Source: Labia minor | Lineage: Eukaryota; Arthropoda; Insecta; Dermaptera; Spongiphoridae | Assembly (NCBI GenBank): GCA_963082975.1 | Contig: OY720346.1 | Span: 68,997,267-69,061,266 of the forward strand | Direction of reading: 5' to 3' | Length of the DNA: 64,000 nt | In this document: positions 8,299 to 50,958 of the stretch, in pieces | How the letters are laid out: each line of letters starts with the position of its first letter | Numbering within the stretch: position 1 is the first letter of the stretch | Program-made: the position numbers and the translations under genes | Notes under the pieces: generated by a model | What the model was told of the DNA's origin: nothing | What the model saw: the letters and a program-made list of their open reading frames with translations, nothing else | The model's database searches: none

Positions 8299-8992
8299 TT
8301 ATCTTGCCAGAGATAGTATTGCGATCGCGAAAATTTTCGATGTCGAGATTTTACTGATTTGATATGTTTTGAAGGTTCCTGAGTAATTTTCACTAACTGT
8401 GTGTGTGTGTTTGTTTATATGTGTGTGTGGGTGGACAAGATGACTCAAAAACGGTTTGAGCTAGAATAATGAAATTTGGTATACGGGCATTATTCAAAAT
8501 TCGTAGTTTTCTATCAACTTTTGAGAAATGTAGCTCAACTGGAAGAGGGTAATTACCTACAACGTTTAGATTTTTTCCTCTAAAGCACTTATTAACTTAT
8601 TTACTTAACTTATTTACTTAGCGCCCCTTTCCAGAAAATAATTTACTCAGTGCCCCATTGGAAATTAACATTTTTTAATTTTAATAACAATTAAACAGAA
8701 AGATAAATGTATCTATTTGCAAAATATTATAAATAAAGGTGTAAATTAGATACATTGAATTTATATATCTATTTATTGAATCGCTGAAAGTACCATAATT
8801 AATTTTTTAACACTGGAAATCACGCGCCAGCACGTGACGTGAAGAGCCTAGAATGCGCTGGTTTAATAAATATTATTTATTAATTCTAATTTATAATTTA
8901 TAATTAATTTAATTTAATTTAAATATAATATATTATGTTATATAATACAATTCAAATTGCGATATAGTCGAGTGGAGACACTCCAGATTTAT
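8299..8992 (+). mobile_element. Helentron-like HINE family A, copy 2
   Basis: The plus strand begins with the 5' subterminal hairpin (ATCTTGCCAGAGATAGTATTGCG). A CGATGTCGAGATTT block follows, then a GT microsatellite at 8398-8428, then the CAAAAACGGTTTGAGCTAG / GAAATTTGGTA cassette. The 3' part carries AATCGCTGAAAGTACC, the GCGATATAGTCGAG repeat and the GTGGAGACACTCCAG hairpin. The middle (about 8588-8765) is replaced by sequence matching the hAT element at 44025-44584. Confidence 0.82.
8588..8765 (+). mobile_element. Internal hAT fragment within HINE A copy 2
   Basis: The stretch around ATTTTAATAACAATTAAACAG and onward to GGTGTAAATTA matches 44095-44430 of the hAT element there. It lacks the ~230-bp retroposon found at 44172-44402, and so behaves as an empty site for that retroposon. 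It interrupts normal family A sequence between CCTCTAA and TTGAATCGCTG. Confidence 0.65.
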
Positions 8993-9919
8993 TTGATTAT
9001 ATTTTCAAATAATTAATAATAAAGGTAATAGAAATTTTTTGAGAGAAAATAGAAAAATGTTTATTTATTAATTCTATCAATTATATCAATTGAGCATTCA
9101 AGGTACATTTAATATTTAATATTATTACTAATTTTTTTTTTTTAAAAATATTTCAATTCAACTAGATTAATTACATTTTGAATTGATTAATAGATAAATA
9201 AAGTTAGAAGGAATGATGAATAGAAATTGAAATATTTTTATAGTAATTTAGTGTCAATTAGGGCATCTGTTTACCAGCAACAGGGTTGGTGGTTAATTAA
9301 CTCACGAGTTTACCGAAGGGGAAGAACAAAGTTCTTCTCCGTTCACACCAGTAACTTAGTCAAGTATATGAACCAAAGATTGGAACCAACGGTTTGATGA
9401 ATGGATTCTTTCACCCTCTCCCCTACCTTCCTCCCCCAAGCCAAAACACCCGGAAACACTGGGGAATAATAAGAAAAAGAAATTGGAACAACCCCCACAA
9501 GTAAAGGAGAAATAGAAATAATCCACAAAAAACGACGACAACAAAAACCATTTTGTTTCGATATAGCCTGTTGGTATTAACCATACCTGAATAATGAACA
9601 AAAGTTAATAGATTTTTTTTTAAATAAAATTTTATATTGTTTATATATTAAGAAATTTGAAAAAGTATTTTCCATACCGATACATAAAAGAAAATTATAT
9701 ATTTATATATTATTATTTATAAGTAAAATAAATAATAAAATCAAATCAAATTAAATAAAAACGTTTGCTAATTAAAAGGAAAAAACTGGACTCTTTATGA
9801 TCTGTTATGAAATTATTATATTAAAAGTTAGCCTCCAAATAAATACATCAATAGGTTTAAGAAATTTAACATTTGAAATTCTTTTTACTATTCCTTCTTT
9901 CATAGATTTTAATTTAATT
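8993..9919. other. AT-rich intergenic DNA
   Basis: No gene recognised. A somewhat GC-richer patch at 9340-9560 has open minus-strand frames in two registers, a sign of composition rather than selection. No domain seen. Confidence 0.5.
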
Positions 9920-9927
9920 GTTTTTTT

Positions 9928-11106
9928 CAGGGCTTCGAACCGTTATTTTTTTCGTTTCGGTTTTCGTTCCGGTTCAATAAAAAAAAAATATCAGTTCGGT
10001 TCCGGTTTTCGTTCCGGCAAAAATACCGGTTTTTTTCGGTTTTCGGTTTTCGGTTCAGTTCCGATTAATTAATTTTAAAGACCTTTTATTTGTATTAGAA
10101 ATTTAGGTCGGGGTATGCCGAATCTGCCATAAATTAGCGCCCGAAAAATATTTCTTGCTACCACCCTAAATCATACTACATGAATTGATACAATATAATA
10201 TAAATAATAATAATTAATTAAAGGTATAATAATTAGAAGTATATAATATAAGATGTTAATATAATTTATTAAACGGAACAAATAAGTATGAATATTTTTT
10301 TACATCCTTCTACTTTCACACACACACAAACACTCAACAAACGAAACAAATTCGTATATTTAATGTTAAAGTATACAGGATTCTTGGATATATTTACTTA
10401 CAATTATAACTATAATTATAAAAGATGAAAATTACCTCTAATTATTAAAATATCTTCCAATATATTTGTATTTAAACTATTTCTATTGTCTCGTAAAATA
10501 AACTTTAAACCAGAGAAAGCTCTTTCAACACTAACTTGTGTTGGAGTAGCTCCTAAAACCACCATTGCAATTTTGTATAAATGAGGAATTGTATTTTTAT
10601 TTTCCTCCCAAAATTCTAAAATAAGTTTTTTACTGTCTAATCTTCGTACCTGGTCAAAGTTATTCAATATTTGTTTAATAATTTTATTTATATTTATGAA
10701 TCATTTTCTTTATATCAATACATAACCCTGTAACAAATGGAATAAATAATTTAAAAAATTAATACTATCATTAATTCAAAATATCAGTATTAAACAAACG
10801 ATGAAAACATTAAATTCTGTATTGCGACTACGAGACGCTGCCAACACAACCGAAGGGAGAGTATGACTAGGACACTAATTTTTGAAACAGTTTTTAGCGA
10901 CACCATGCAGTACGAGACATAACTAATTAAAAAAAATTCGGGGTTGTGTGTTGCCAAAACGCCCAAAAACACCACTTCTGGCAACTCTGGATTGAACACT
11001 GAACTGAAATAAACCGATATTATTTTTTTCGGTTCAGCTCCGGTTTTCGTTCCGACAAAAATACCGGTTTTTTCGGTTTTCGGTTCAGTTCCGGTTCGAA
11101 GCCCTG
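9928..11106 (-). mobile_element. hAT DNA transposon, 1.18 kb, internally deleted
   Basis: The ends are inverted: CAGGGCTTCGAACCG at 9928-9942 and CGGTTCGAAGCCCTG at 11092-11106. An exact 8-bp target duplication, GTTTTTTT, lies at 9920-9927 and 11107-11114. Both features are diagnostic of hAT. Just inside each end are C/G-rich TTCGGTTTTCGGTT and CCGGTTTTCGTTCCG arrays in mirrored order, likely transposase-binding subterminal repeats. The only recognisable coding part is the transposase C-terminus on the minus strand. At 1.18 kb the element is too short for a complete hAT transposase, so it is non-autonomous. It abuts the 5' end of a HINE family B copy and seems to have inserted in that copy's T-rich flank. 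Confidence 0.93.
10416..10667 (-). pseudogene. hAT transposase C-terminal dimerisation domain fragment
   Basis: The 83-residue minus-strand frame contains the hallmark hAT C-terminal (Dimer_Tnp_hAT) pattern. A FWEENKNTIPHLYKIAM block is followed by VSVERAFSGLKFILRD and NTNILEDILIIRGN. In intact transposases (typically 500-700 aa) this region mediates dimerisation and carries the last part of the RNase H-like core. The upstream catalytic region and zinc finger are absent; the DNA towards 11000 has no matching frame. The N-terminal start shown is only the first Met of the open stretch. The fragment lies inside the hAT element, whose ends and 8-bp duplication support the assignment. Confidence 0.9.
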
Positions 11107-11114
11107 GTTTTTTT

Positions 11115-11405
11115 ACCGACCGACGATAGTAAGGGAGGTATTGTTTTCACCCCAAATTTCACATGTGGAGATTTTTACATATCTCCACGAATCAAGCATT
11201 TTCGTAACAGAAAAAAGTATTTCTAGCATGATGTCTGTCCGTCCGACCATTGTGTGTCCGTCCGACCATTGTGTGTCCCTCCGTTTAGATGTGTACAGCT
11301 TGAACGGCTCAACGGATTTTGATAAAATTTGGTATATTTACTTAATGCATCAGTAGCATGAATTATTCAACTTTTGGTGTATATTCGGAAATCGGAAGTG
11401 GTAGT
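11115..11405 (+). mobile_element. Helentron-like HINE family B, copy 1 (5' half)
   Basis: It starts at the family 5' end ACCGACCGACGATAGTAAGG directly after the hAT target duplication. It then runs through CACATGTGGAGATTTTTACA, a GTCC-type microsatellite, and the AACGGCTCAACGGATTTTGAT / AAATTTGGTATATTTACTTA cassette to CGGAAGTGGTAGT. The 3' part with the terminal hairpin is missing. A short open frame through the microsatellite recurs in the copy at 18377 but looks like a by-product of repeat composition. Confidence 0.82.
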
Positions 11406-11950
11406 TTACAAAAAATATTAATTTTATATTCATTGTCAGAAAATATTATGAGGTCAACTTATTTATTTTTTTTTTTTATTATTATTATTTTTGAGGAATC
11501 CTATTTAAATTCAACCATAAAAATACACCTAAACAGGGGCGGGTGTTTATTTTTCAATATACTTTCAAATTTGTAATTATATGATCATAATCAAACTCTC
11601 TATTTACATTCCAAAATAAAATTATATTTAATTAATACGTAGTAATAGATTATTATTATTATTATAGCTAAAATAAATCTCATGTTATACATACATTTTT
11701 ACAATTCAATTTCACATCCAAATCATCATTGCTAAATAAAATAATTTTTTTTTTTTTTTGAAAAATAAAGGGAACATTTATTTATTACTTAATGACTATG
11801 GATTTTTGCATTTCTTTGAATAGATTTATAAACATGCAATGTTTCGGGAATAGAGCCCAAGTTACATAAATTAGATGCAGAAATATTATATTTATATTTA
11901 AGTATATAAATAAATTCCTCAAGTTATTTCAAATAATAATAAATAAAATA
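11406..11950. other. AT-rich DNA with a short Helitron-related stretch
   Basis: 11407-11450 (TATTAATTTTATATTCATTG) resembles segments at 49545 and 52905 that belong to Helitron fragments. The rest is AT-rich with T and ATT runs and no gene. Confidence 0.45.
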
Positions 11951-12580
11951 AGCTGGAGTGTCTCCACTCGACTATCTCGCAATTTGAATTGGATTAAATA
12001 ACATAATATATTATATTTAAATTAAATTTAATTAATTATAAATTATAAATAATAAATATTAAACCAGCGCATGTTTGGTTTTTTATTGATGGCACCATGG
12101 CACGTGTTGGCGCGTGAGATTTGCAGTGTTAAAAAATTAATTCTGGTACTTTCAGCGATTCAATCAAGCTGAAATTCTATATATAGCAGTTTTATACAAT
12201 TATTAATCATGTGAAAAATTATCAAACATATATCTTTATTTTTACGGTCACTTTAAAGGAAAAAAAATCTAAACGTTGTAGGTATTGACCCTCTTCCGGA
12301 TGAGCTACATTTCTCAAAAGTTGATAGAAAACTATGAATTTTGAATAATGTCCATGTACCAAATTTCATCATTCTAGCTCAAACCGTTTTTGCGTAATCT
12401 TGTCTACATACATACATACACACACACACACACATACACATGCACATACACACACACACACACAGACATTTTTCTCAACCTTAGTGAAAATGATTCAGGA
12501 ACCTTCAAAACGTATAAAAACATCAAAATCTCAACATCGAAAATTTTCGTGATCGCAATACTATCTCTGGCGAGATAGTA
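11951..12580 (-). mobile_element. Helentron-like HINE family A, copy 3, full length
   Basis: The best family A copy. Minus-strand reading: 5' hairpin ACTATCTCGCCAGAGATAGT at 12561-12580, then ATTGCGATCACGAAAATTTTC, a GT/CA microsatellite (12409-12463 on plus), the CAAAAACGGTTTGAGCTAG and GAAATTTGGTA cassette, and an AT-rich body. The 3' end has GCGAGATAGTCGAG, the GTGGAGACACTCC hairpin and AGCTTATTTT. The 5' and 3' ends share GAGATAGT as subterminal repeats, and both flanks are T-rich on the element strand. This order is the architecture described for Drosophila DINE-1/HINE elements. No coding capacity. Confidence 0.85.
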
Positions 12581-13344: not shown

Positions 13345-13345
13345 T

Positions 13346-13989
13346 ATAGTGATTCTCAATAGGCGCCATTAGGTGTGTGGGTAGCGAACCTGCCTCACAT
13401 TCACATGGTCCGGGGTCTGGCAAGGGAATTCCCCTAGCTGGGGTCTATGCGACGGAGTCAACCCAGCCTCCGGGAACAACATTGGGGAAAAGCTACTTGA
13501 TAGCGCCTCCGATCAAGAAAATCAAGGTAAAGGTTGAGAGGATCCGTTCTACTGATCATAGAACACCTCATTGACATAACCGGCTTGATAGGCGTTGTCC
13601 TTGCGTAGGACGTACAAAGTCAGAGGTTTTTTTTTATAGTGATTCTCAACTTGAGCGATATCGCCTCCTGGGGGGGGGGCGATCGACATCTTAAAGGGGG
13701 CGATAAGTTATTTTTGGGGGGCGAAATCATTTCCAACTCTAAAAAAAGTAAGATGATTTTGCGAGCAGGCTTTTAAACATTTCCTCTTTTTCCAATAAGG
13801 TTCTAAAAAAAGTAAGATGATTTTGCGATCAGGTTCTGAAACTCGATTTTTCAATATGGTTTTAAGTATCACCAAGTGTACCTACCTTATATTAGGGATT
13901 AGCATGCAATTTTTATCTGTTAAAATTTATAAGGGGCGAATTATGAAGCCGGCCATACAAAGTGGGCGTTTGGTCCAAAAAGGTTGAGG
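13346..13989 (+). mobile_element. hAT-like element (family E), copy 2, carrying a SINE
   Basis: The end motif TAGTGATTCTCAA is present twice because the SINE at 13360-13634 duplicated it on insertion. After the SINE the element continues with CTTGAGCGAT and GGGGGCGATCGACATC. Two GTAAGATGATTTTGCGA repeats follow, and then GGGCGTTTGGTCC with AAGGTTGAGG, the decayed far end. About 365 bp without the SINE. Related copies at 6165 and 51370. Non-coding. Confidence 0.78.
13360..13634 (+). mobile_element. tRNA-derived SINE, copy 2 (subfamily 2)
   Basis: Exact 15-bp target duplication TATAGTGATTCTCAA at 13345-13359 and 13635-13649. The head AGGCGCCATTAGGTGTGTGG differs from copy 1 and matches the copy at 21567-21838. 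It also lacks the second hairpin arm: GCTACTTGATAGCGCC here, against GCTACTTGATAAAAAGTAGC in subfamily 1. The B-box region is partly lost (GGTCCGGGGTCTGG). The 3' end reads GTCAGAGG followed by a T-run, so the tail is poly(T) on the sense strand, possibly the Pol III terminator itself. Confidence 0.92.
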
Positions 13990-14656: not shown

Positions 14657-15293
14657 AAGTTGACCTGTGGCCAGGTCCGAACCGACCGACGGTTTGAAAT
14701 AAATTAATTTCCAGCTACAGAAACAATTTCAAATAATTTTAATATATCTATTAATTTAATAAAAAACAGATATGGATAGAACATAAATATTTTTAATTTT
14801 ATTTTATTTATAATATATAGCTGAAGTAGCCGCCGTTGCCCGTGATCATAATACGGAGGCTGTGACGTCATGATGGGCTGGGTGACGTCATATAATTTTA
14901 AATTAAGAAAAACATAATGAAGATGATTTTTCCCGAGGATAAAACCAATACATTCGTGATGATATGTAAAAAAATCTCTTCATGTGAAATTTGGTGTGAA
15001 AATAACCCTTCCCTTCCTATCGTCGATCGCTAATACTACCACTTCCGGTTTCCGGAATTGCACCAAAAGTTGATCAATTCATCATGCATTAAGTAAATAT
15101 ACCAAATTTCATCAAAATCGGTTGAGCCGTTCAGGCTGTACACATCTATACGGACGGACAGACCGACGGACAGACATCATGCTAAAAATACTTTTTTCTG
15201 TTAAGAAAATGCTTGATTCGTGGAGATATGTAAAAATCTCCACATGTGAAATTTGGTGTGAAAACAATACCTCCCTTACTATCGTCGGTCGGT
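14657..15293 (-). mobile_element. Helentron-like HINE family B, copy 2, full length
   Basis: Minus strand: 5' end ACCGACCGACGATAGTAAGG (15293 inward), CACATGTGGAGATTTTTAC, a GTCC/GTCT microsatellite (15153-15176), the AACGGCTCAACCGATTTTGAT and AAATTTGGTATATTT cassette, CCGGAAGTGGTAGT, and paired TGACGTCA motifs at about 14861-14890. The 3' end has the inverted ACCGACCGACGG/CCGTCGGTCGGT repeat, the GACCTGGCCACAGGTC hairpin, and AACTTATTTT. Like family A it ends in hairpin plus CTTATTTT, so the two families share one terminal design despite different sequences. Confidence 0.85.
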
Positions 15294-15987
15294 AAAAACA
15301 AACCAGGATAATGGATATACAATTGTAGAACCTTTCTATGAAAGGGAATTAAAGATATGAATTCATATTTCAACTAAATGAGAGAGAGATTCATTGATTG
15401 GTATATTAATTACATAACAGTTTATATGTCTCAATCGAGCAGATTAAAATGCTAATCGCCTTTATTTAAATTATATATATAAATATAGGTATATTCAAAT
15501 AACTAATAAATTTGATTTCGATAATAAATTATATTATAAAATCTGTAATAGAATCAAAAAAATAAAATAAAAATGGATATTCAAAATTCTCTTAAAAAGA
15601 ATATTTTTCAAATTCATTTTTAGGCCTTTCAAAGCATCGTTGCAATCCAAAATGAGTAATTTATAAATATCCTGCTGTTAATTAAGCCATCATTTTTTTA
15701 AATAGATCAACCAAGTGGAATGGTATATTTTTTCACAGGACAATGGATTTCGAAAGTTAATTAGCATTTGTTACAAATGAACTTCTTGGCTCGCGTTTGT
15801 AGAAGGAATGAGGTTGGATGTAATGGGGGAAGGGGGAGCGACGAATAATCGGAAAATGTTACATTTTAAATAGAAAATGATATTCTTAATAAAAAAGAAA
15901 AAAAAAGAAAAAAGATACAAACAGTAATTAATACTTAAAAAGTATATAAGTAAAATATGTTGATTATTAGAAACCAAATTATAATTA
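15294..15987. other. AT-rich intergenic DNA
   Basis: No gene or repeat recognised. Confidence 0.55.
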
Positions 15988-16000
15988 TTATAGAATAAAT

Positions 16001-16295
16001 ATAAAGCGCCACAGGGTGGGAGGTAGCGTCGCTGGCTCACATTCTCGAGGTCTCGGATTCAAGCCCCGGGCCTGTCAAGGGAATTACTCTAGCTAGGGTC
16101 TATGGGACAGAGTCAACCCAGCCTCCGGGATCAACATTGGGAAAGCTACTTGATAAAAAGTAGCGCCTCCGATCAAGAAAATCAAGGCAAAGGTTGATAG
16201 TACCCGTTCTACTGATCATAGGACACCGAATTGATATTACCGACTTGATAGGCGTTGTCCTTGCGTAGGACGTACAAAAGTAAGATGTTTTTTTT
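16001..16295 (+). mobile_element. tRNA-derived SINE, copy 3 (subfamily 1)
   Basis: Head AAAGCGCCACAGGGTGGGAGG, B box GATTCAAGCCCCG, the GCTACTTGATAAAAAGTAGC hairpin, TTGATAGGCGTTGTCCTTGC near the 3' end, and a sense-strand T-run tail. The target duplication TTATAGAATAAAT lies at 15988-16000 and 16296-16308; its junction with the T-run is ambiguous by a base or two. Well preserved. Confidence 0.92.
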
Positions 16296-16308
16296 TTATA
16301 GAATAAAT

Positions 16309-18376: not shown

Positions 18377-19034
18377 TAAGTTGACCTGTGGCCAGGTCCG
18401 AACCGACCGACGGTTTGAAATAAATTAATTTCCAGCTACAGAAACAATTTCAAATAATTTTCATATATCTATTAATGTAATAAAAAACAGATATGGATAC
18501 ATAAATAATAAATATAAACATTTTTAATTTTATTTTATTTATAATATATATGCAAGACCAGGCTGTGACGTCATACATGGCTGGATGACGTCATATAATT
18601 TTAAATCAAGAAAAAACTAATAAATATGATTTTTTTCGAGGATAAAACCAATACAAAATGCATGATTCGTGGTGATATATAAAAAAATCTCCTTTGGTGT
18701 GAAAATAACCCTTTCCTTCCTATCGTCGATCGCTAATACTACCACTTCCGGTTTCCGGAATTGCACCAAAAGTTGATCAATTCATCCCACTGATGCATTA
18801 AGTAAATATACCAAATTTCATCAAAATCGGTTGAGCCGTTCAGGCTGTACACATCTATACGGACGGACAGACGGACGGACAGACGGACGGACGGACGGAC
18901 GGACAGACGGACAGACATCATGCTAAAAATACTTTTTTCTGTTTAGAAAATGCATGATTCGTGGAGATATGTAAAAATCTCCACATGTGAAATTTGGTGT
19001 GAAAACAATACCTCCCTTACTATCGTCGGTCGGT
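18377..19034 (-). mobile_element. Helentron-like HINE family B, copy 3, full length
   Basis: Nearly colinear with the copy at 14657-15293, including the GACCTGGCCACAGGTC hairpin at its 3' end and CCGACCGACGATAGTAAGG at its 5' end. It differs mainly by an expanded GGAC/GACA microsatellite (18859-18916) and by losing some of the CACATGTGAAATTTGG-type internal duplicate. An open frame through the microsatellite (18739-18921, minus) yields Ser-Val-Arg repeats, a composition artefact. Confidence 0.86.
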
Positions 19035-20097
19035 AAAAAAGTAAGGCATCGGCCCCAACAAAAACAATTGATAAAAATGACATCAAAAGTTCGAGATTAA
19101 TAGACTTATAAATATTTAAAAAATATAAATCAATATAAGAAAGTGCTGGTGCTCAAATTTTATAATTCTTCTTTTATCACTGGATTTTAATATTTAATCT
19201 AATATCTGTCCTGAGAAAGACTCTTTCAAATGTATTTCTTCACTAAATTTAAGAGCAGAACGAATCCCTTTTATTTTGAAAATTTTCTTAATTTTAAAAT
19301 CTTAATCTTAAAAAAAAAATTATATTAAATTTATTATTGATATTATATTATTAATTAATTAATTAATTAAAAATAATAATAAACTTTAAGCACTCATTGA
19401 TTGAAAACCTAAACCTAAAGGAAAGGCGATTTGCAAACCTGATCAATATTTCACACACAAATCAAATATCAAAGTCAACAAAGTTTTCAAAGAGAATGCT
19501 TTTATTAATTATTTTCCAATAATTAATCAATTTTATATGCATTTGACGATAAGTTAATGTATTGCCTTCGGAAAGAAAATCATATGTAAACATATTTTTG
19601 TATTGGAAAATGTATCAAATATGGATATAAAAGGCATATAAATAGATTGAAAAAATTAAATGAAATATGTGACAGGAAATTGAACAATTGAAAGTATAGA
19701 ATAATATATATATGTATATTATATATATATAAATATAGTATATATATTTAGTTTTTTATAATATGTTCTTAAAATACTTTAACGATTTCGATATAATTTT
19801 ATTTTATTTTGTTTTTTCAATGATATAAGTACATTTGTTAACACGATTTTAAAAAAAGTTTAATTTAGTTTTATTATTTTTTATATAAATATAATGTATG
19901 TATGTAATATTATATAGTTATTATAAAAGGTATTAAAAGAAGAATCAAAATAAATTGCCTTATATTCCTTTGGTTCTTTTAAATAAATATTATATAATAT
20001 AATATAAATAAATTAATATTTATTTATAATTTATGTAATTAGTAGCCAAATATAGAGTTTATAAATAAATAAATAAATAGAAATACATAATATATAT
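19035..20097. other. AT-rich intergenic DNA
   Basis: Includes a (TTAA)n tract at about 19349-19370 and TATA-rich stretches at 19703-19745. No gene recognised. Confidence 0.55.
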
Positions 20098-20109: not shown

Positions 20110-20382
20110 AAGGCGCCACAGGGTGTGATGGCTAGCGTCGCTGACTCACATTCTCGTGGTCCCGGGTTCAAGTCCCGGGCCTGGCAAGGGGATTTCTCTA
20201 ATGGAGGGAGTCAACCCAACCTCCGGGATCAACATTGGGAAGCTACTCGATAAAAAGTAGCGCCTCCGATCAAGAAAATCAAGGTAAAGGTAGGACCCGT
20301 TCTACGGATCATAGGACACTGAATTGATATAACCGACTTGATAGACGTTGTCATTGCATAGTACATACAAAAGTCAGAGGTA
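20110..20382 (+). mobile_element. tRNA-derived SINE, copy 4 (subfamily 1, best tRNA-like head)
   Basis: The clearest tRNA-like head in the family: an A-box-like GGCTAGCGTCGCTG, then CCCGGGTTCAAGTCCCGGG, a perfect T-arm with B box GGTTCAAGTCC. A CTACTCGATAAAAAGTAGC hairpin follows. The target duplication AAATATTTAAAT lies at 20098-20109 and 20383-20394. This copy ends in GTCAGAGGT with no T-run tail. Confidence 0.93.
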
Positions 20383-20410
20383 AAATATTTAAATTATATA
20401 AATTAATTTT

Positions 20411-20441
20411 ACCGACCGACGATAGTAAGGGAGGTATTGTT
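20411..20441 (+). mobile_element. 31-bp HINE family B 5'-end stub
   Basis: ACCGACCGACGATAGTAAGG and the following GAGGTATTGTT match the family B 5' end exactly. The sequence beyond is unrelated AT-rich DNA, so this is either a remnant after deletion or an aborted rolling-circle insertion. Confidence 0.8.
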
Positions 20442-20830
20442 ATTAAATTGTGATTAGTTTTATAATTATAGTTTATTTAATAATTAATTAAAAAAATATT
20501 TTGTTCTTAAAATTAATTTTAGATAATTATTGTGATATGTTTTATAAAAATAATTATTAGAATACATTTTCGCATTATTATTTTTTTATAGTATTTGTTA
20601 GAATCAAAATAACTTAACTTTGATTTTCATTAAGAAAAAGGCAAAGAAGATGATGTTTAGTGACAGATAGTAGTGGATTTGGTATTAAATATGAAGATGG
20701 AGTACTATTTTAGCAGGATATTAGGGAGGAGGTAGCTGTTAGCAATTTCTTCTGAAGTGTTAAGAGAGGCTGGATAGGAGGTGGGTGGTTGGAGAAGGAG
20801 AAGGGGTTGTGTTAATTAAGTGCACAATAC

Positions 20831-21566: not shown

Positions 21567-21838
21567 AAAAAAAAACTTCTGACTTTGTACGTCCTACGCA
21601 AAGACAACGCCTATCAAGCCGGTGTCCTATAATCAGTAGAACGGGTCCTCTCAACCTTTACCTTGATTTTCTTGATCGGAGGCGCTATCAAGTAGCTTTT
21701 CCCCAATGTTGTTCCCGGAGGCTGCGTTGACTCCTAGACCCCAGCTAGCGAAATTCCCTTGCCAGGCCCGGGACTTGAACCCGGGATCATGTGAATGTGA
21801 GGCAGGTTCCCTACCCACACATCCAATGGCGCCTTTTA
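21567..21838 (-). mobile_element. tRNA-derived SINE, copy 5 (subfamily 2)
   Basis: Reverse orientation. A-run 21567-21575 (the sense poly(T) tail), CTTCTGACTTTGTACG, ATCGGAGGCGCTATCAAGTAGC (hairpin arm deleted, as in copy 2), B box complement GGACTTGAACCCGGG, and the head complement ATGGCGCC. Short 8-bp flanking duplication TTAGAATA at 21559-21566 and 21839-21846. Confidence 0.92.
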
Positions 21839-29444: not shown

Positions 29445-29471
29445 ACAGACAGACCGACAGACAGACAGACC

Positions 29472-29502
<31 letters not shown>
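29445..29502 (+). repeat. (GACA)n microsatellite within the Helitron
   Basis: Repeated GACA with CCGACA interruptions. It sits at the same relative position, beside the conserved cassette, as the microsatellites of the HINE families. Confidence 0.9.
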
Positions 29503-33020: not shown

Positions 33021-34115
33021 GTATGAATTTCTAAAAATCTTTAGAGCGGTTTAATATTTCAAAAATACAAATTTATATATATACAATTTTTGCTAGTATA
33101 ATAAGATACTCATTTTTTTCAATATTATTTGTGGATTTTTAATAGTTAGAATGACTAGAAAATATTACCCTTATTACATTCTTAAATCAACACTAATGAC
33201 CCATACATTTAAGAATGATTTTTTACCCTCCACCTTAAAGTAAAATTAAAAGTTATATTTATTCTAATAAAATATTATTATTATTTTTTTTTATTTCTTA
33301 CAATAATATATTTGATGGAAAAAATTTGCATTTTGTTAATCTTTCTTTAATTTTTTTTTTTTTTTTTTTTTATTTCTTCAATTCAACTGAGCACTTTTTA
33401 TTCCTTTCTCTCATACACGTCATTCTCCTTCATTGAAACACCTCTTGTTGTTTTTTTCCTCCCTTAAAAATCTTATGAATATTTAAATCAAATTCAAATC
33501 AATAATAAAAAAGAGAACAACTTGTAGTTGAATTGTAACGAAACAACGACTAGATAGAGTTGCTTGTAAACTTTCTTCAAGCACCCCTTCCCCCCATCCA
33601 CCCACCCTTTCCTTTCATAACATTCCTCAAAAATCTCCAAGTAATAATTCTTTACTCCTTATACTTTGAAATTTAATTATAAAATCAAAAAATAATATTA
33701 AAAAACTAATGTCATAGAATTTATTATTTTGTAAAAATTATTCTGAGAACATCAAAACAAAATATCCATTATATAATGTATATTTATATAATTGCATTAC
33801 AGGTAAAATATTTATTTTGTTTTAACATTGAATTTATAGAGTATAGAAGTATTTTTGATTTCCAACCAAGATTGTTTCCTATAATCTTAATTTATTCATC
33901 ATAATTTGAATTTTGATTTCAAGTTATCTTGATTTGCGCAAGAAACATTTTAATTTAATTTTTGAAATATCAGTTTCAACCCACTGCTAGCAACATTTAC
34001 ACTTTCGAAAACTTCTATTAAATAAATATATACATGTATCATTAAAATATGCTACAAAAAAAAAGGAAAATTATTTTCATAACAAATCATCATAATTCAT
34101 GGTATCAGTATTTTT
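33021..34115. other. AT-rich intergenic DNA
   Basis: T-run at 33350-33371. No gene recognised. Confidence 0.55.
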
Positions 34116-34229
34116 ACATCTCGTCAGAGATAGAGTTGCGATAATGAAAATTTTCAATGTTGAGATTTTGATGTTTTTATTCATTTTGAAGGTTCCTTAT
34201 TCATTTTCACTAAGGTTGCGAAAAACGGC

Positions 34230-34264
<35 letters not shown>

Positions 34265-34748
34265 TTGTGTATGTATGTAAACAAGATTATCGCAAAAACG
34301 TTTTGAGCTAGAATCATGAAATTTGGTACATGGACATTATTTGAAATTTGTTGTTTTCTAACAACTTTTGAGAAATGTAGCTCAACCAGAAGAGGGTCAT
34401 TACCTACCACGTTTTGATTTTTTTTCCTCCAACCTGACCGTAAAAATAATGATATATGTTTGATAGTTTTTCACATGATTAAAAATTGTATAAAACTGCT
34501 ATATATAGAATTTCAGCTTGATTGAATCGCTGAAAGTACCAGAATTAATTTTTTAACACTGCAAATCTCACGCGCCAACACGTGACGTGGTGCCATCAAT
34601 AAAGAGCCAAACATGCGCTAGTTTAATAAATATTATTTATTAATTTTAATTTATAATTTATAATTACTTAATTCAATTTAATTTAAATATAATATATGTT
34701 ATTTAATCCAATTCAAATTGCGAGATAGTCGAGTGGAGACACTACAGC
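34116..34748 (+). mobile_element. Helentron-like HINE family A, copy 4, full length
   Basis: 5' hairpin ACATCTCGTCAGAGATAGAG, TTTTCAATGTTGAGATTTTG, (GT)n at 34232-34261, AAAACGTTTTGAGCTAGAAT, GAAATTTGGTACATGG, CAACCAGAAGAGGGTCATTA, the AATCGCTGAAAGTACC block, and the 3' end GCGAGATAGTCGAGTGGAGAC with ACTACAGCT. The 3' hairpin carries one mismatch (ACTACAG instead of ACTCCAG). Open frames across the GT repeat are repeat-derived. Confidence 0.86.
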
Positions 34749-35404: not shown

Positions 35405-36039
35405 CTATTTATCTCTGTGGCTCCATTGAACTCGAAAGTTCTTGGCCGCACAACCACACTTATCCAAGTATCCCTATTCTGAGCCACAACCCTCCAATCA
35501 ATCCCTACCCTCTCCCATCTCTCTCAAGTCCCTTCCTACATTATCCACCCACCGCGTCCCCGGTCTTCCAAGAGGGCGTTTCCCACTCGGTCTCCCCACC
35601 AATATATTTTTCGCCATTCTTTCTTCTCCCATTCTAGCCTATCGCAGCCTTCTCGATTTTATAATTTTAACTATATGCATAGAGGTCATGCAATTCCTCG
35701 TTATTCAATCTTCGCTATTCCCTGATGACCTCATCTTTCTTTGGCCCATAAATGCTTCGCAGAATTCTATTCTCAAATACTCTAAATCTACTCTCGTCTC
35801 CTAAGGTCATAGACCATGCCTCACACCCATATAATACAACCGGCATAATAATTGTTTTATATATTTTAATTTTGATCCCCTTTGATATTAATTTTAACGC
35901 GATAAGCCCCTTTACTGCATGATAACAGGCTCTTCCCAATTGCAACCTCGCTTTAAACTCTTCTCGAACATTATTGGCCTTCGTTATTACAGAACCTAAA
36001 TATTTAAATTTTTCTACACACACACATTTTCAAATTCTA
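35405..36039 (-). pseudogene. LINE insertion, copy 3, best preserved C-terminal region
   Basis: A 102-residue minus-strand frame (35715-36023) reads EKFKYLGSVITKANNVREE, LQLGRACYHAVKGLIALK, SKGIKIKIYKTIIMPVVLYG and CEAWSMTLGDESRFRVFENR. This is the region after the reverse transcriptase fingers/palm, typical of arthropod LINEs whose polyprotein continues beyond the catalytic domain. The frame breaks before the 3' end, which continues to the family tail at about 35405-35420. Flanked by a 13-bp duplication ATATTCTATATAT at 35392-35404 and 36040-36052; it is AT-rich, so slightly less decisive. 5'-truncated at 635 bp and not functional. Confidence 0.9.
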
Positions 36040-36170: not shown

Positions 36171-38992
36171 ATGGCATAAATAGTTGGAATCAAGGATAAT
36201 ACATGGGCTACATCGATGGGGGATGTTGAGACAATCAGCCCTTTATCTCTATAGACACTCGGAACGGCTGGTTATATAGTAAATGCCTTTTGGCCCTAAA
36301 TGCCCTGGTTATTATTAGCAATTGTATGGAATGCCAGGCGTTAAGGAACAAGAAGGAAGTCGAACCTATACCTATCAAGGAATAAGTTTCTGTATTATTT
36401 ACTAAAAAGATGCCTGTTTATTAACTCTATTTCTTCTATATATATTAAGATATCTCAAAAAAACTTAAAACTTATCTTTTTGTAATAAAAATAATAGGAA
36501 AACTGTGAAATTTAAAAAATTATTTAGATTTTGAGAATTTTTAGAAATGGTTCATTGAAAATCCTCATAAAATATCCAAGTTAAATACAAATATCCTTTT
36601 TATAGTGAAATAAGTAAAATTTTATATGAATTTGGATAAATTATTTACTTTTTGTTTTTTCAATGGTGAATTTAATATCTTTCATAGAAAATAAATTCTT
36701 TTGATGCTATTACAGAAATAATATTGCATAACCCTCAGGGGAACTACCTACATATATATTTGGAATCATATAAAAAACATACCGGGCGAGTTTTTTTTTT
36801 CTTTTTGAGGTTGCAATCAAAAATTTATAATCAAATTTAAATTTTTATTGAATTTTATTTACATTTATTTTTGATCTTTTAAATAAATAGATTAAACTAA
36901 TATTCTATAAAATTTTACTAAAGTAGAGGAAGTCAAGTTTATGCTTATAATCATTACAACATAATTTCTCAAAACTGAATCATTAATGAATAGATTTAAT
37001 CTACATTTTAGAGATTAAACATTATAAAAACAAAACATAAAAGATGTGTAGTTAATAACAAATTTATTTTTAGCTGATAATATCTCGTAAATATAATATT
37101 CATTCGACAATTATTATGTCTAGGAATTTATTTAAAAAAAAAAATTATTATTTTAAAATTATCCAAATAGGTTATTCTTTATTTATTTTTCTCATTTGAA
37201 ATACAATTTTCAAAGAAAAAAAAAGCATTGAAGGTAATATTAGTTCATAAACTACATACATATGTATATATGTCACATTTTCATAAAAGAAATAATACAT
37301 ATTAATAAATAAATATTCATTAAAAAAAAAATGAATAATACATCTAAAATGTTTTTTATGACCCTTTTATTAATTTTCTTGAGAGAACACAAAATGTTTT
37401 TCCCTCTTTTATTTAAAGATTACCATATCATTTAATGTTATATATTTTTTTTGTTTGGTCTTTTGAGTGAGAAATACAATAAATAGTCATGTTTATGTAG
37501 TAAAGTAATTAAAATTTTTATGATTATATGAGTTGTTTTTATTTATAGGGTGGTTGTTAAATTTTAAATCCAATTTTTTTGAAAAATAAATTCAGTTTGG
37601 AAGTTAAAGTGGCTATTTTTTTTAATAAATCTGAATACAAATAATTTTCCTTGGGTATTAATTCTGATTTCAACACTCGCCCTCCCCCCCCCCCCCGCTC
37701 CCTCTCACTTTATCCTTCCTCTTCCATTCTTTTTCACAGAGCCCACACATTCAGAGCCCATTCTATTATACAAAGCAATTCTCTGTGTTCATTTCTACCC
37801 CCACCCCCCTCCTCCTACTACACTCTTATTCCCCTTCATTTCGTTTTTTTGAACATTTTAAAACCATGAAAAGACTATAAAATATGTTCTGGCTGGTTCC
37901 GTGGTAATTTTTCTTCAGGTTAACTGTCCCTTCTCTCTCTCTCTCTTCTCATTCTGTTTCCTTTAATATTTCGGCTAATTAAATTATTACAAAGGAACCT
38001 TCATTGCAGTGTTGTCGTTAATTGTAGATTTTTTACCACCTCAAAAGACGTAGGGATGAGATAGAAAAGGGTGAAAGAGGACTTGGAACAGGGAATCGCT
38101 GCAAAGGCGATTCTGGTTACATAAAACCTTCCACAGTTGGTTTTTATGGCATTCCAAAAAGTCTCAGCAACATCTTAATGTTATTTAAGGGCTCATTACC
38201 TTCGCCGAATCTTATACCATGGCCAAGTGTCCTTTTACTTTTTTTTTGTACTACTGGATACCATTTCAAAAGCCATGCGGTCTGTAGACGAGAAAACCGC
38301 GTACACTTAAAAAAACCTTTCCAAAGACGAATCTGTATCATTGATGATACGGCTCATAAAGAGAAAACAAAAACAAACACAATATATATATATATATAAA
38401 CAAACAAAAAAAAAACAAGAACAACAAATGAAATTGTTGGAAATATTTCAGGTGTGAAGATAGGAACATTTTACAAAGGTTTCTCCCCTCAGCCAATTCG
38501 TTCAAAAGTAAAAATAAATTTAAAATAAAATAAAACAAAATAAAGAAAGAAAGAACACAACGAGGAAGAGAAAAACGAATATAATTAATGAATAAAAGAT
38601 AAGTTTAGAGAAAAAAAAAAAAAAAAAGAAATGAAAGAAGACAAAAAAAGATTTTTTTTTGAAAAATAAATACACCCAACCAATTGTCGTATTTCAATTA
38701 TTCCAATTCTTTTCTTTTCTCAATCAAAGACAAAATTAAAAAAAAAAGATTTATATGACCATTTAGTATAATAATGATAATCACATATAAAATAAAATTC
38801 TTTATATTTTATTAGTATTTTGAAAATTTTATATATTTTCTAAAAAAATAAGCGGGAGTGTCCTCCCCTAGACTTTCCCGCATATAAATAGGTATAAAGA
38901 GTTGTGAATGAATATTTAGAATGTGTAAACTTGGTATTGATAAAGAGCCAGTTCGTATTAGTTTATTGGTGTCAAATTTGATATTTGGTAAC

Positions 38993-39020
<28 letters not shown>
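36171..39020. other. AT-rich intergenic DNA with mixed-complexity patches
   Basis: 36180-36400 has ordinary complexity but no open frame or known element. 37680-37830 is C/T-rich with a C-run. 38070-38350 has open frames on both strands with no recognised domain. (TA)n at 38998-39022. No gene can be supported. Confidence 0.5.
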
Positions 39021-39023
<3 letters not shown>

Positions 39024-39027
<4 letters not shown>

Positions 39028-39055
39028 AAAGTGCTACTTCCGGTTAACTGATATT
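39024..39055 (-). mobile_element. HINE family C fragment left of the family B insertion
   Basis: AAAGTGCTACTTCCGGTTAAC resembles GTACCACTTCCGGTTAACCG at about 39744 in the family C element on the other side of the family B copy. Confidence 0.5.
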
Positions 39056-39568
39056 TTAAATGTAAAAAAAACAGATATGGATATAATATAAATATTTTTA
39101 ATTTTATTTTATTTATAATATATAAGGGCTGGCTGTGACGTCATGAAGTGCTGGGTGACGTCATATAATTTTAAATTAAGAAAAAACTAATGAAGATGAT
39201 TTTTCTCGAGGATAAAACCAATACAAAGTGCATAACACATGGAGATATGTCCTCACGTGAAATTTGATATGAAAATAACCCTTCACTTCCTCTCTTCGAT
39301 CGGCAATACTAGCACTTCCGGTTTCCGGATTTGCACCAAAAGTTGATCAATTCATCCTAATGATGTATTAAGTAAATATACCAAATTTCATCAAAATCCG
39401 TTGAGCCGTTCAGGCTGTACACATCTATACGGACGGACGGACAGACATCATGCTAAAAATACTTTTTTCTGTTAAGAAAATGCATGGTTCGTGGAGATAT
39501 GTACCTAAAAATATCCATAGGTGAAATTTGGTGTGAAAACAATACCTCCCTTACTATCGTCGGTCGGT
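39056..39568 (-). mobile_element. Helentron-like HINE family B, copy 4 (lacks 3' hairpin)
   Basis: Matches 14765-15293 in order: AAAACAGATATGGATA, paired TGACGTCA motifs at 39137-39163, CCGGTTTCCGGATTTGCACC, the GAGCCGTTCAGGCTGTACAC cassette, a GGAC microsatellite, and the 5' end complement CGTCGGTCGGT at 39558-39568. The terminal GACCTG hairpin region is missing and replaced by family C-like sequence. Confidence 0.8.
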
Positions 39569-39573
39569 AAAAA

Positions 39574-40030
39574 GGAAACGCTACTTGTATAGGTAAAATG
39601 TCACTTCCGGTAGTCAGATCATGATGAAATTTGGTATCTCAATTTTTTTCATATTTTTAAATCTATATACAAAATAGGAAGCAAATATCTCGAAGCAAAC
39701 TGGTACTTTACTTGAAAGGTAAATGCAACCATTGTAGGTAAAGTACCACTTCCGGTTAACCGATTTTGACGAAATTTTGATAGAAATCTACAAACTGTGA
39801 ATAATATCGGTGTACCAAATTTCGAAGTCCTAGCTTGATTAGTTTTTGAGTAAATTTGCTTACAGACATTACATACATACATACATACATACATACACAC
39901 ACACAGACATAATTCGAAAAATGGTATTTTCCGACTCAGGGAGGTCTAAAACATCAAGATCTATCGAAATCTCGAAGTCGAAATTTTTGACGATTCCAAT
40001 ACTTCCCTTATACGAAGTATGCGGGAAAGT
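39574..40030 (-). mobile_element. Helentron-like HINE family C
   Basis: On the minus strand the 5' end reads ACTTTCCCGCATACTTCGTA and TAAGGGAAGTATTGGAATCG: a hairpin-forming subterminal region strikingly like the ACCCGTTACTCGTAGAGTAA..GGGTATACTAG start I remember for Drosophila DINE-1. Then follow CGACTTCGAGATTTCG, a TATG/GTGT microsatellite (39874-39905), a CTCAAAAACTAATCAAGCTAG / GAAATTTGGTAC cassette and CGGTTAACCGGAAGTGG. The element's 3' end is not found downstream of the family B copy, consistent with B having inserted in C or replaced part of it. Confidence 0.78.
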
Positions 40031-41203
40031 AAAAACAATTAATAATTTATTGTAGATGTATAAAATTTAAATTTTACTTTCTAATAATTATTGCCAGTTT
40101 ATTATTAATATTTTATAGATTCCATTATTTTCTAACTTTTTATTTTACTAAATGAAAATGTTTAAATGATGTGAAAGTATGTTTAAATGTTTTTGAGTGA
40201 AATGATAGTTTGCTTGAGAAAGTTTGAAAATATTTATCTAATTTATATAATTATTAAAAAGTTCATTAATTTCTAGAAACCGAAATTATCATTTTCATTT
40301 AAGCATATTCAAAAAACTATACCTAGTATAGTTTAGAAATGTTATGTATAATATTATAATAATTTTCGAAAAAGTTTTATGATCGTAAAATATTTTTTAC
40401 TTAAAATTAAATTTTTTTTAAATAAAATTGCGGGTTGCCTAACATCTAAGTAATCTACCCTTGAAATATATCATTGAAATATAGTAAATACTTATTTATA
40501 AAATATATTAGTTTATAGTAATTTTAATTGAAGAAAAATTGGTGAAAATTTAAAAAATTTGTCGAAAAAAATAAATCAATAAAAATAATTTCGATTTACA
40601 GGAAATTAGTAAAAACTTTCTTTTTGTGTGGTGACTTGAAAAAAGTTATATAGAGTAGGGGTGGGTGGTTGAAAATATCGACTGATAATTAATCATCATT
40701 TCTGACATCAGTTAAATTAACTCTCGCTCAACTCGCTTAATGCTATTATCATTAATATTATTATTTTTACTTTAATATTTAATTTATTTTATGTGTATGT
40801 GTGTGTGTGTGTGTTTGTGTGTGATTAATAAGAACAAAAATAAAAAGAGAGACAAAGATATGGAAAAGATAGGACTGTGTGTTTGTTTTTTTCATTGTTT
40901 GGAGAAAAGGAGGATGGTATTTTGGAGTCCGGAGAGGGTTAAAAGAAAGGGTCTGAAAAGAAACTTGAGCAATGTTTTATTGATGATTTATTTTAATTTT
41001 TATTTTCCGTCTTCTTTTTTTATTCTTCTCTTTTTTAACCTCTTCTCCACCCCCACCTCTCTTCCCTCTCTCAACCATTTTTATTAGCTTTCTTGAAGAA
41101 GCGAGATTGAAAGGAACCAACTCATATAAAAAAAAGTCTTAGGAGTATTTCTACTCGAGAAGAATTTTATATCTAGATATTTAATGGACTTTCCAGTAAA
41201 ACG
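40031..41203. other. AT-rich intergenic DNA
   Basis: (GT)n at 40793-40822. No gene recognised. Confidence 0.55.
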
Positions 41204-41796: not shown

Positions 41797-41827
41797 AAAT
41801 TATATATTTATATATATATATAAAAAT

Positions 41828-42108: not shown

Positions 42109-42116
42109 ATATAAAT

Positions 42117-43168: not shown

Positions 43169-43200
<32 letters not shown>

Positions 43201-44016: not shown

Positions 44017-44024
44017 GTATAAAC

Positions 44025-44584: not shown

Positions 44585-44592
44585 GTATAAAC

Positions 44593-46010: not shown

Positions 46011-46164
46011 ATATAATATAACAAAATAATAGTGGATAGGTGTTTCTACGATGAATGCTTCTTTCTTTCTGTCCGTCTCTGGCTCTGTTCAATCTAACGC
46101 CCTCCCGTGGCCAAACCCGTAATTACATATATATACATGCACACACACATACACACAGAGAGAC

Positions 46165-48581: not shown

Positions 48582-48589
48582 GTTTATAT

Positions 48590-48861
48590 CAGCGGTTCTC
48601 AACCTGGGGGGCGGGAGCATATCAAGGGCTCGCGAATGCATTTCAAGTGCCCGCAATCTTTTGAAAATTTTGTTCTAAAAAAAAGGTAAGATGATTTTGT
48701 GGCCAAACTTTCCGAACAATTTCGATTTTTTTCAATTTTTTTTCAAAATGGTTCTAAAAAAAAGGTCAGGTGATGATTTTGCGATACTCTAAAAAAGGTG
48801 GGCGTGACCTAACATCAGTGTTCTAAGGGGGGCAATGAGTCTGAAAGGTTGAGAACCCCTG
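48590..48861. mobile_element. hAT MITE with exact 8-bp target duplication
   Basis: Left end CAGCGGTTCTCAACCTGG, right end AAGGTTGAGAACCCCTG, target duplication GTTTATAT at 48582-48589 and 48862-48869. Internal repeats GTAAGATGATTTTG and GTCAGGTGATGATTTTG link it to family E. Non-coding, 272 bp. Confidence 0.92.
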
Positions 48862-48884
48862 GTTTATATAGTTTGTATTTATAT

Positions 48885-49810
48885 TTAACTAATATTAAAG
48901 GAAAAATATGCCCTCCTCCCGAAGTAAAAGATATTATTTGGTTGAAAGTCTGTATGTAATAAGTTTACATTCATTTTATTTCAATCATTATATTATAACA
49001 TTCATTTTCTTTTCGTGTTTTTATTTATTTTTTAATTGAATCAGTAAACAAATTAAATATTTTATTGTAAATGTTATAATAGATTATAATTTTTCTTAAT
49101 ATTTATTTTGTTATTTGTTTTTTATTATTATTTATCGTTTTTTGAATAATTTCTATTAGGGAAAACTATATAGTTAGAGACTAGAAATATTTTATAAAAT
49201 TATAACTAACTTTTTTAAGACAACCACATAAAAATTTAATTATATTCAATATTTATTTTTTCAATTTAAATACGATTTAATCTAAACTTGTGAGTCATAA
49301 TAATTGGTATACAGAAATAATGAATGTTCTTAGCGGGATTAGATTTGATCTAATGTGTTGTCCAAATTGGCCTTAATCCGCTTGATTTTCTCCAAAGATT
49401 AGGAAAAAAAGTTGAGCTCTACCCTAATCCAATTGATTCCCTCATTCAAGTTGAATGATGCACCTAAATTATTAAATTAATTAAAATAAGAACTTATAGA
49501 ATAATTTATTATTATTATTATAATCATTCTTTTTGTGAAAATGACAAGATTTATTAATTTTATATTCATTGACGGAAATTAATCGACTCCTTCACTGAGC
49601 CACGAGAGGCTAGGAGCATTATATAAATTTTTAAAAATGAATTTCTATGGTCATTAAATAGTTAGTGACACAATAGTTATTGCTCAAAAAGTGGTATATA
49701 AGAAAATTGTCATATAATTTCATAGGTTCAGCCAATTTTGAGTCGATAACTTCACAATTTTCTGGACATACATGCATACATTCATACATACATCATCACA
49801 ATATTCTTAT
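48885..49810 (-). mobile_element. Helitron fragment related to 26751-29620
   Basis: Colinear with the Helitron. TTTGGTTGAAAGTCTGTATG and CATTCATTTTATTTCAATCA parallel 26830-26890. ATTGTAAATGTTATAATAG is the empty site corresponding to the LINE target at 26968. GAATGTTCTTAGCGGGATT, the TTCATAGGTTCAGCCAATTT cassette and a CATACATA tract follow. Both termini are degraded. Confidence 0.78.
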
Positions 49811-50355
49811 ATACCTCTATTTGAAAATATTTAGATCATATTTTATAAGATAGAACATTACAAATATAAGAGAATTAAAAACATTCTACAATTTCATTTC
49901 TGGCGCCAATTAACCCCAAAGGTAATTGATTAAAGACAAATTCAGTTAAAAAAAATATTGACAAACAAGACAAAATAAAACGAAAGATGAATTGGAATTA
50001 AACTGAATTTTGTAATTATCTATAATCACATTTTGACATTAAATACTTTATAAAGAATTTATGAAATCACATAGAATTTTATAGATTTTTAAATGTACAA
50101 TACACATTAAAGTATATAAATTCAAATTCCAATCCTTTATCTTGGATAATTTATAATCGTGTTTAATATTTATTAATTATTCAGAACGCTTTGTTTACTC
50201 TACTCCACGTAGATTCTTTCTAGCATAGGTTAATATAATTTAAACAAAACTTTTAAATGTAATTATCTATGTATACATATCTAATTGCCTTAAATTTGTA
50301 ATTTTATTTTTTAAATATTTCAAAAATTTTCTAAAAAAAAACTTTTCTTTTTTTT
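49811..50355. other. AT-rich intergenic DNA
   Basis: No gene or repeat recognised. Confidence 0.55.
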
Positions 50356-50958
50356 ACTATCTCACGAGAGATAGTATTGCGACCAAGAAAAATTTTCGAA
50401 GTTGAGATTTTGATGTTTTTATACGTTTTGAAGGTTCCTGAATCATTTTCACTAAGGTTGAGAAAAATGTGTGTGTGTGTTTATGTATGTAGACAAGATT
50501 ACGCAAAAACGGTTTGAGCTAGAATCATGAAATTGGTACATGGGCATTATTTGAAATTTGTTGTTTTCTATCAACTTTTGAGAAATGTAACTCAACCGGA
50601 AGAGGGTCATTACCTACCACGTTTTGATTTTTTTTCCTCTAACCTGACCGTAAAAATAAAGATATATGTTTGATAGTTTTTCAAATGATTAATAATTGTA
50701 TAAAACTGCTATATATAGAATTTCAGCTTGATTGAATTGCTGAAAGTACCAGAATTAATTTTTTAACACTGCAAATCTCACGCGCCAACACGTGACGTAG
50801 TGCCAACAACAAAGAGCCAAACGTGCGCTGGTTTAATAAATATTATTTATTAATTTTAATTTATGATTTATAATTAATTAAATTTAATTTAAATATAATA
50901 TATTATGTTATTTAATCCAATTCAAATTGCGAGATAGTCTAGTCGAGACACTCCAGCT
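50356..50958 (+). mobile_element. Helentron-like HINE family A, copy 5, full length
   Basis: 5' hairpin ACTATCTCACGAGAGATAGT, then GAAGTTGAGATTTTGATG, a short GT tract (50469-50480), GCAAAAACGGTTTGAGCTAG, GAAATTGGTACATGG, CAACCGGAAGAGGGTCATTA, TGCTGAAAGTACCAG, and the 3' end GCGAGATAGTCTAG with GAGACACTCCAGCTTATTTT. The shortest microsatellite of the family. Confidence 0.86.

What the first reader, a model, noticed from the sequence alone, without database searches (positions are those of the whole stretch)
8299..50958. A shared microsatellite-plus-GAAATTTGGTA cassette across unrelated element families
HINE families A, B and C share the same internal order: a simple repeat (GT, GTCC or TATG), 15-40 nt spacer, a block like CGGYTBRACCGAT or AACGGTTTGAGCTAG, then GAAATTTGGTA and an ATTATT-like stretch. 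The canonical Helitron (29390-29502) has a shorter form: GACA repeat, spacer and GAACCGATTTC, then only TTGAAATTACATCACAATATTCTT, so GAAATTTGGTA itself is not conserved there. The outer sequences are not alignable. Shared cassettes suggest module exchange between rolling-circle families, common descent, or a functional site that seeds microsatellites (for example a replication or strand-switch site).
Basis: partly seen in the sequence, partly recalled or inferred. Interest (0 to 1): 0.72.

Follow-up and report, generated by a model that had tools for sequence, protein, structure and literature searches.

The report
Related jumping-DNA families sharing a 5' block
The shared repeat-plus-motif cassette is most likely not a module swapped between unrelated elements but the best-kept part of a longer block that three related families of non-autonomous rolling-circle transposons (the DINE-1/HINE kind) inherited from a common ancestor.

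Summary
The cassette is real in families A, B and C, but the premise that the outer sequences cannot be aligned is wrong. With the GAAATTTGGTA core removed, an ungapped alignment anchored on it still matches A-C at 64/97 positions and B-C at 48/97 (0 of 113,700 other window positions do as well) and A-B at 51/97 (1 of 113,700). ATCAA at +31 and CCGGAAG at +57 recur in all three families. A-C and B-C similarity also runs upstream of the microsatellite. In A12, C and all four B copies the array starts with the same seed, ATGTCTGT. Subterminal inverted repeats (10, 11, 13 bp), T-run flanks and 3' stem-loops mark them as DINE-1-like HINEs (non-autonomous Helentrons) sharing a homologous 5' 'block A', in which a microsatellite and a conserved core are already published. 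The 11-mer is unusually well kept (65 of 20,000 shuffles reach its run length), so a cis-acting role is plausible but untested. Genome copies and autonomous partners could not be examined: the genome search did not complete.

The parts
8298..8987 (+). HINE family A copy A8 (T-run flank, eroded subTIR, (GT)n, core 8471-8481, 3' stem-loop)
11952..12578 (-). HINE family A copy A12; core 12357-12367
34115..34748 (+). HINE family A copy A34 (start approximate); core 34318-34328
50357..50957 (+). HINE family A copy A50; core shortened to GAAATTGGTA, 50529-50538
6286..6613 (-). truncated family A copy, 3' part only (no cassette)
14658..15295 (-). HINE family B copy B15; core 15100-15110
18379..19036 (-). 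HINE family B copy B18; core 18809-18819
11113..11458 (+). HINE family B copy B11, internally shortened; core AAAATTTGGTA 11324-11334
39046..39570 (-). HINE family B copy B39, 3' end missing, inserted in C (low-coordinate limit approximate); core 39379-39389
38851..40032 (-). HINE family C (interrupted by B39): 13-bp subTIR pair, core 39813-39823, 3' stem
39626..39636 (+). GAAATTTGGTA on the opposite strand inside C, beside an ACCGGAAGTG
49590..49815 (-). element D2, degraded relative of D1 with (TATG)n-like array and a ~26-nt inverted arm abutting the array (limits approximate)

Best explanation
Families A, B and C are DINE-1-like HINEs: non-protein-coding partners of Helentrons, moved by rolling-circle transposition with proteins supplied in trans. 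Their shared 'cassette' is the middle of an inherited 5' block ('block A'): subTIR (with a partial inverted repeat in A and C), GTATTG, GAGATTT, a GTCTGT seed grown into a family-specific microsatellite, a 51-52 nt stretch ending in GAAATTTGGTA, then ATCAA at +31 and CCGGAAG at +57. Shown here: collinear homology, constant spacing and the termini. Inferred: the block is kept because Helentron proteins or a host factor must read it in cis, and the microsatellite is replication slippage at an inherited seed. The subTIRs have diverged between families, as expected if each matches its own autonomous partner (inferred).
For: Ungapped identity outside the 11-mer, one copy per family: A12-C 64/97, B18-C 48/97 (0 of 113,700 window positions each), A12-B18 51/97 (1 of 113,700). 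Gapped scores against window tiles: A-C 5' part 0/4458 and 0/4461, downstream part 0/4470 both ways; B-C 5' part 1/4458 and 0/4458, downstream 0/4470 and 2/4470. ATCAA at +31 and CCGGAAG at +57 in A12, B18, B39 and C39; B15 has both 6 nt nearer (deletion); A8, A34 and B11 carry substitutions in one or both; A50 was not in that call. subTIRs: A 10 bp in A12, 8 bp in A50, eroded in A8 and A34; B 11 bp in 2 of 2 tested; C 13 bp. Predicted stem-loop 3' of the subTIR in 5 of 7 ends tested (A8, A12, A34, B15, B18). Shared ATGTCTGT seed in A12, C and 4 of 4 B copies. Literature: DINE-1 block A is A1-(CCGT)n(CTGT)n-A2 with a ~90 bp conserved core, and consensus autonomous copies carry block A (PMC2374699, passages and section 12 part 1); DINE-1s are 98% identical to partner Helentrons (PMC4067079, passages).
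Against: A-B alone is modest (5' part 8/4458 and 9/4461 tiles; downstream 27/4470 and 2/4470); C, a single copy, is the bridge. The B-C cassette by itself is at background (55/4529 and 345/4529; 31 nt before the core 11/31, 14,621 of 115,240 positions as good). Beyond about 110 nt after the core only A12-C stands out (0 of 500 shuffles; A8-C 122, B18-C 424, A12-B18 22 of 500). Of the other two 3' ends tested, C's predicted stem overlaps the subTIR and A50's fold is altered. B has no clear inverted repeat next to its 5' subTIR (by eye). Mite HINEs lack the IR and core (PMC4067079 passage), so the core does not define HINEs. Of 31 ORFs of 90 aa or more, 6 went to Pfam, with no Rep/helicase/endonuclease hit; none could be sought in the genome.
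Confidence: 0.86

Rival explanations
1. Module exchange: the cassette was copied by template switching between otherwise unrelated rolling-circle families.
For: The 11-mer is much better kept than its surroundings (longest three-way identical run 11; 65 of 20,000 column shuffles reach it). Family B matches A better than C in the cassette (38.5 vs 25) but C better than A outside it (63.5 vs 55.5 upstream, 56.5 vs 46.5 downstream).
Against: Similarity with constant spacing extends upstream and downstream. 3' ends are alike in A12/A50 and C (GGAGACACTCC or GAGACACTCC / GGAGGACACTCC, followed by TTATTTT).
Confidence: 0.06
2. Functional cis element: GAAATTTGGTA with CCGGAAG at +57 is a binding site for Helentron Rep/helicase or a host protein, kept by selection across families. 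CCGGAAG resembles the ETS-factor core (recalled).
For: Run-length test. All 8 CCGGAAG in the 64 kb window lie in A, B or C elements, in the element's orientation. Constant spacing in 4 of the 8 copies examined.
Against: Only three families, one of them a single copy. Part of the constancy is simple shared ancestry. Mite HINEs lack the DINE-1 core (PMC4067079 passage). No binding data.
Confidence: 0.35
3. The cassette is common to Helentrons and canonical Helitrons, the 29.4 kb element being its Helitron form.
For: B cassette against D1: score 39, 0/4519 and 5/4529 window tiles as good, above all 500 shuffles. Same order after a GTCT array. Hel-2 Helitrons of insects carry (CTGT)n downstream of the 5' subterminal repeat (PMC4344730 passages).
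Against: A and C against D1 are at or near background in every region (best: C 5' part 139/4451 one way, 1434/4458 the other; with C cut short it was 6 of 500 shuffles). The A/B/C profile finds D1 only at E = 2.7. D1's Helitron ends are not confirmed and D2 lacks the CTAG.
Confidence: 0.3
4. Chance plus AT-rich composition.
For: With 2 mismatches allowed the 11-mer is not enriched (62 vs 68.4 expected).
Against: Exact core and long anchored similarity exceed every or nearly every window position.
Confidence: 0.01

Closest known systems
DINE-1 / INE-1 / mini-me of Drosophila (non-autonomous Helentrons)
   Same: subTIRs, 3' stem-loop, insertion at T runs, block A = conserved part + GTCY-type microsatellite + conserved core (PMC2374699, PMC4067079; passages)
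   Different: subTIR sequences differ; the GAAATTTGGTA/CCGGAAG motifs were compared with the Drosophila core from memory only; Tandem Repeats Finder lists no long central array inside A-C (155 rows, 5 not shown)
Cg_HINE elements of Crassostrea gigas
   Same: 5' subTIR + IR + microsatellite (in several GTCY/GTCC/GTCK) on the left, 3' subTIR + palindrome on the right; some families share flanks (PMC7492417 passages)
   Different: oyster elements carry satellite-like central arrays; some oyster families are unrelated in all modules
Helitron2_Cv / Helitron3_Cv of Calliphora vicina
   Same: DINE1-like; a (GTCT)2 'protosatellite' expanded in 3 insertions (PMC3630058 passages), as inferred here
   Different: other species; no sequence compared here
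Hel-2 Helitrons (BmHel-2, OnHel-2)
   Same: tetranucleotide (CTGT)n downstream of the 5' subterminal repeat (PMC4344730 passages), like element D
   Different: TC/CTRR ends predicted there, not established for D

Membership tests
HINE / DINE-1-like (A, B, C) | subterminal inverted repeats of about 10-15 bp | tested here: met
   A12 ACTATCTCGC (10), B15 and B18 ACCGACCGACG (11), C ACTTTCCCGCATA (13); A50 8 bp; not recovered in A8 and A34
[quoted passage not shown]
   A TATCTC..GAGATA clear in 2 of 4 copies (A12, A50; eroded in A8, A34); C ACTTTCCC..GGGAAGT partial; B none clear (read from the sequence). Mite HINEs lack it too (PMC4067079)
HINE / DINE-1-like (A, B, C) | stem-loop near the 3' end, after the 3' subTIR | tested here: met
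   predicted in A8, A12, A34 (weak), B15, B18 (5 of 7 ends); in C the predicted stem overlaps the subTIR; A50 folds otherwise
HINE / DINE-1-like (A, B, C) | microsatellite inside the 5' block, beside a conserved core (DINE-1 type) | tested here: met
HINE / DINE-1-like (A, B, C) | insertion in T runs, no target duplication | tested here: inconclusive
   T run at the 5' side of the nine copies with a 5' end, TTATTT-like 3' side in most ends; no empty sites available
HINE / DINE-1-like (A, B, C) | autonomous Helentron (Rep-helicase-endonuclease) with the same ends | not testable with these tools
   The genome search did not complete (12 tries)
canonical Helitron (D) | 5' TC and 3' CTRR between A and T | tested here: inconclusive
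   D1 has a possible TCTAT start and a CTAG, but followed by C, not T; D2 has no CTAG at that place
canonical Helitron (D) | hairpin about 10 nt before CTRR | tested here: inconclusive
   the hairpin predicted for D1 includes the CTAG itself

The most novel reading that the evidence does not exclude
GAAATTTGGTA plus CCGGAAG at a fixed +57 is a cis recognition site of the rolling-circle machinery. It has stayed nearly constant while subTIRs turned over between Helentron families, is shared in part with element D, and the neighbouring GTCTGT seed repeatedly grows microsatellites because strand displacement pauses there.
Probability: 0.12. Interest if true: 0.6.

Novelty: new member of a known kind. 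Interest (0 to 1): 0.27.

Why it matters
It turns an apparent case of module swapping into ordinary descent. It gives three HINE families with one alignable 5' block and fixed-spacing motifs that can be looked for in autonomous Helentrons. It also shows how one inherited seed can yield different microsatellites (GT, TATG, GTCC), a practical warning for microsatellite markers in such genomes: 5 of the 6 merged tracts of 20 nt or more (unit 2-4 with G or C) in this window lie in these elements or D1.

Tried and rejected
(1) Stem with the microsatellite in its loop, GAAATTTGGTA being one arm: inverted match between 5' part and cassette side reached by 10, 10 and 12 of 1000 shuffles in B18, B15, B39, 376 in B11, 146 in C, 84-928 in the four A copies, 713 in D1; only D2 is strong (0 of 1000). 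Not shared, rejected. (2) Cassette paired with the downstream ATCAA..CCGG stretch: 31-183 of 1000 in A, 277 or more in B, C and D. Rejected. (3) Similarity of D1 and D2 beyond D1's CTAG: 1469 of 5116 tiles as good, so no sign that the element continues there. (4) Relatives in public collections: exact patterns in viral contigs and genome contigs gave 0 hits; by their descriptions these hold viral contigs and prokaryote genomes, so this says nothing about insects. (5) Letters in papers: GAAATTTGGTA in 4 papers, unrelated by title (listing); six longer words, 3 papers, unrelated by title (listing). (6) Rfam at gathering threshold: 0 matches. tRNA scan: 0. (7) From memory only: the cassette recalls 5' parts of lepidopteran Helitrons and the Drosophila DINE-1 core; not tested.
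Full report
What is there. The window is AT-rich eukaryotic DNA (GC 20-34% per 2 kb) full of dispersed repeats. Family A has four copies and one 3' piece, family B four copies and a solo 5' fragment, family C one copy split by a B insertion.

Is it more than chance. With two mismatches allowed the 11-mer is no commoner than in shuffles (62 vs 68.4), so the motif alone proves little. The exact motif occurs nowhere outside these elements (0 of 115,640 positions).

Is it confined to the cassette. No. I anchored one copy per family on the 11-mer, removed it, and counted identities without gaps over 31 nt before and 66 nt after: A12-C 64/97, B18-C 48/97, A12-B18 51/97. Of 113,700 window positions outside the families, 0, 0 and 1 did as well. 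By parts: the 66 nt after give A-C 45/66 (0 of 114,540), B-C 37/66 (0), A-B 35/66 (6); the 31 nt before give A-C 19/31 (6 of 115,240), A-B 16/31 (441), B-C 11/31 (14,621, background). ATCAA begins 31 nt and CCGGAAG 57 nt after the core in A12, B18, B39 and C; in B15 both are 6 nt nearer; A8, A34 and B11 differ by substitutions in one or both motifs; A50 was not in that script.

Gapped comparison (A and B consensuses, C single copy) against window tiles, upstream of the microsatellite: A-C 0/4458 and 0/4461, B-C 1/4458 and 0/4458, A-B 8/4458 and 9/4461; downstream: A-C 0/4470 both ways, B-C 0 and 2, A-B 27 and 2 of 4470; the cassette itself: A-B and A-C 0 of 4529 both ways, but B-C 55 and 345 of 4529, that is background. 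More than 110 nt after the core only A12-C stands out in shuffles (0 of 500; A12-B18 22, A8-C 122, B18-C 424). In one search C's 5' part was cut short; supersede those values.

What the elements are. A has a 10-bp subTIR (ACTATCTCGC in A12; 8 bp in A50, not recovered in A8 and A34), B 11 bp (ACCGACCGACG, B15 and B18), C 13 bp (ACTTTCCCGCATA). A stem-loop 3' of the subTIR is predicted in 5 of 7 ends; in C the predicted stem overlaps the subTIR and A50 folds otherwise. 5' flanks are T runs. A12 and C share their last stretch almost letter for letter (GGAGACACTCCAGC / GGAGGACACTCCCGC, then TTATTTT). This is the anatomy published for DINE-1 and HINE elements: 13 bp subTIRs, a GTCY microsatellite inside block A, a ~90 bp conserved core, a 3' stem-loop, T-rich targets (PMC2374699: passages and section 12 part 1; PMC4067079: passages). 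Mite HINEs lack the IR and the core, so A-C are of the DINE-1 type. Microsatellites in the left module of HINEs are reported in oyster (PMC7492417 passages), and a (GTCT)2 'protosatellite' expanded in 3 insertions in Calliphora (PMC3630058 passages).

The microsatellite. In A12, C and all four B copies the array begins ATGTCTGT, in D1 GTCTGT; A8, A34 and A50 do not show it. One inherited seed that slipped into GT, TATG or GTCC arrays explains the 'different repeat, same place' pattern (inference). Of 33 merged perfect tracts (unit 2-4 with G or C, 12 nt or more) 9 lie in A-C or D1; of 6 of 20 nt or more, 5 do.

Is the core special. In the three-way alignment 115 of 303 columns are identical and the longest run is 11; 65 of 20,000 column shuffles reach that. 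All 8 CCGGAAG of the window are inside A, B or C. This fits selection on a cis site but rests on three families; it is an inference.

Element D. The 29.4 kb element (minus strand) matches B in the cassette (score 39; 0/4519 and 5/4529 tiles; above 500 shuffles) and weakly upstream (6/4451 and 59/4458), but A and C only at or near background. In a plain scan of the window with B's cassette, family A's copy A12 (42) and a stretch on C's opposite strand (41) score higher, another on C's opposite strand equals it, and the next place outside any element (63301) reaches 38. The A/B/C profile gives D1 E = 2.7. Its Helitron ends are not confirmed. A relative, D2, lies near 49.7 kb; just before its array it has an inverted copy of the sequence that follows the cassette (score 40, 0 of 1000), which looks like a single fold-back rearrangement.

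Verdict. Three related HINE families with a homologous 5' block; common descent, not module exchange. Identity of the species, genome copy numbers and autonomous partners were out of reach.

Noticed in passing
49680-49830 (-): D2 carries a ~26-nt inverted copy of the ATCACAATATTCTTATATACC stretch directly beside its (TATG)n-like array; that arm matches D1 (96%) better than D2's own downstream arm (87%), as if strand switching had occurred at the array.
   Followed up: partly
14911-15037, 18631-18740 and 39207-39309 (-): Family B holds a second, degraded copy of its own 5' part downstream of the cassette (37, 25 and 15 bits with the 5' profile).
   Followed up: no
38851-40032 (-): C holds three ACCGGAAGT stretches and an opposite-strand cassette-like piece (39626 +), possibly its central repeats.
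   Followed up: partly
20407-20443 (+): Solo 5' fragment of family B (23 bits).
   Followed up: no
10416-10697 (-): Remnant of a hAT transposase C-terminal dimerisation domain (Pfam PF05699, E 1.3e-13).
   Followed up: yes
35715-36029 (-), 4352-4645 (+): ORFs that look by eye like remnants of a non-LTR reverse transcriptase C-terminus; no Pfam hit at E 0.001.
   Followed up: partly
1913-2090, 13410-13618, 16016-16278, 20125-20371 (+), 21612-21815 (-): Dispersed GC-richer repeat, tRNA-derived SINE-like by eye (GTCCCGGGTTCAAGTCCC in the 20125 copy); no tRNA or Rfam match.
   Followed up: no
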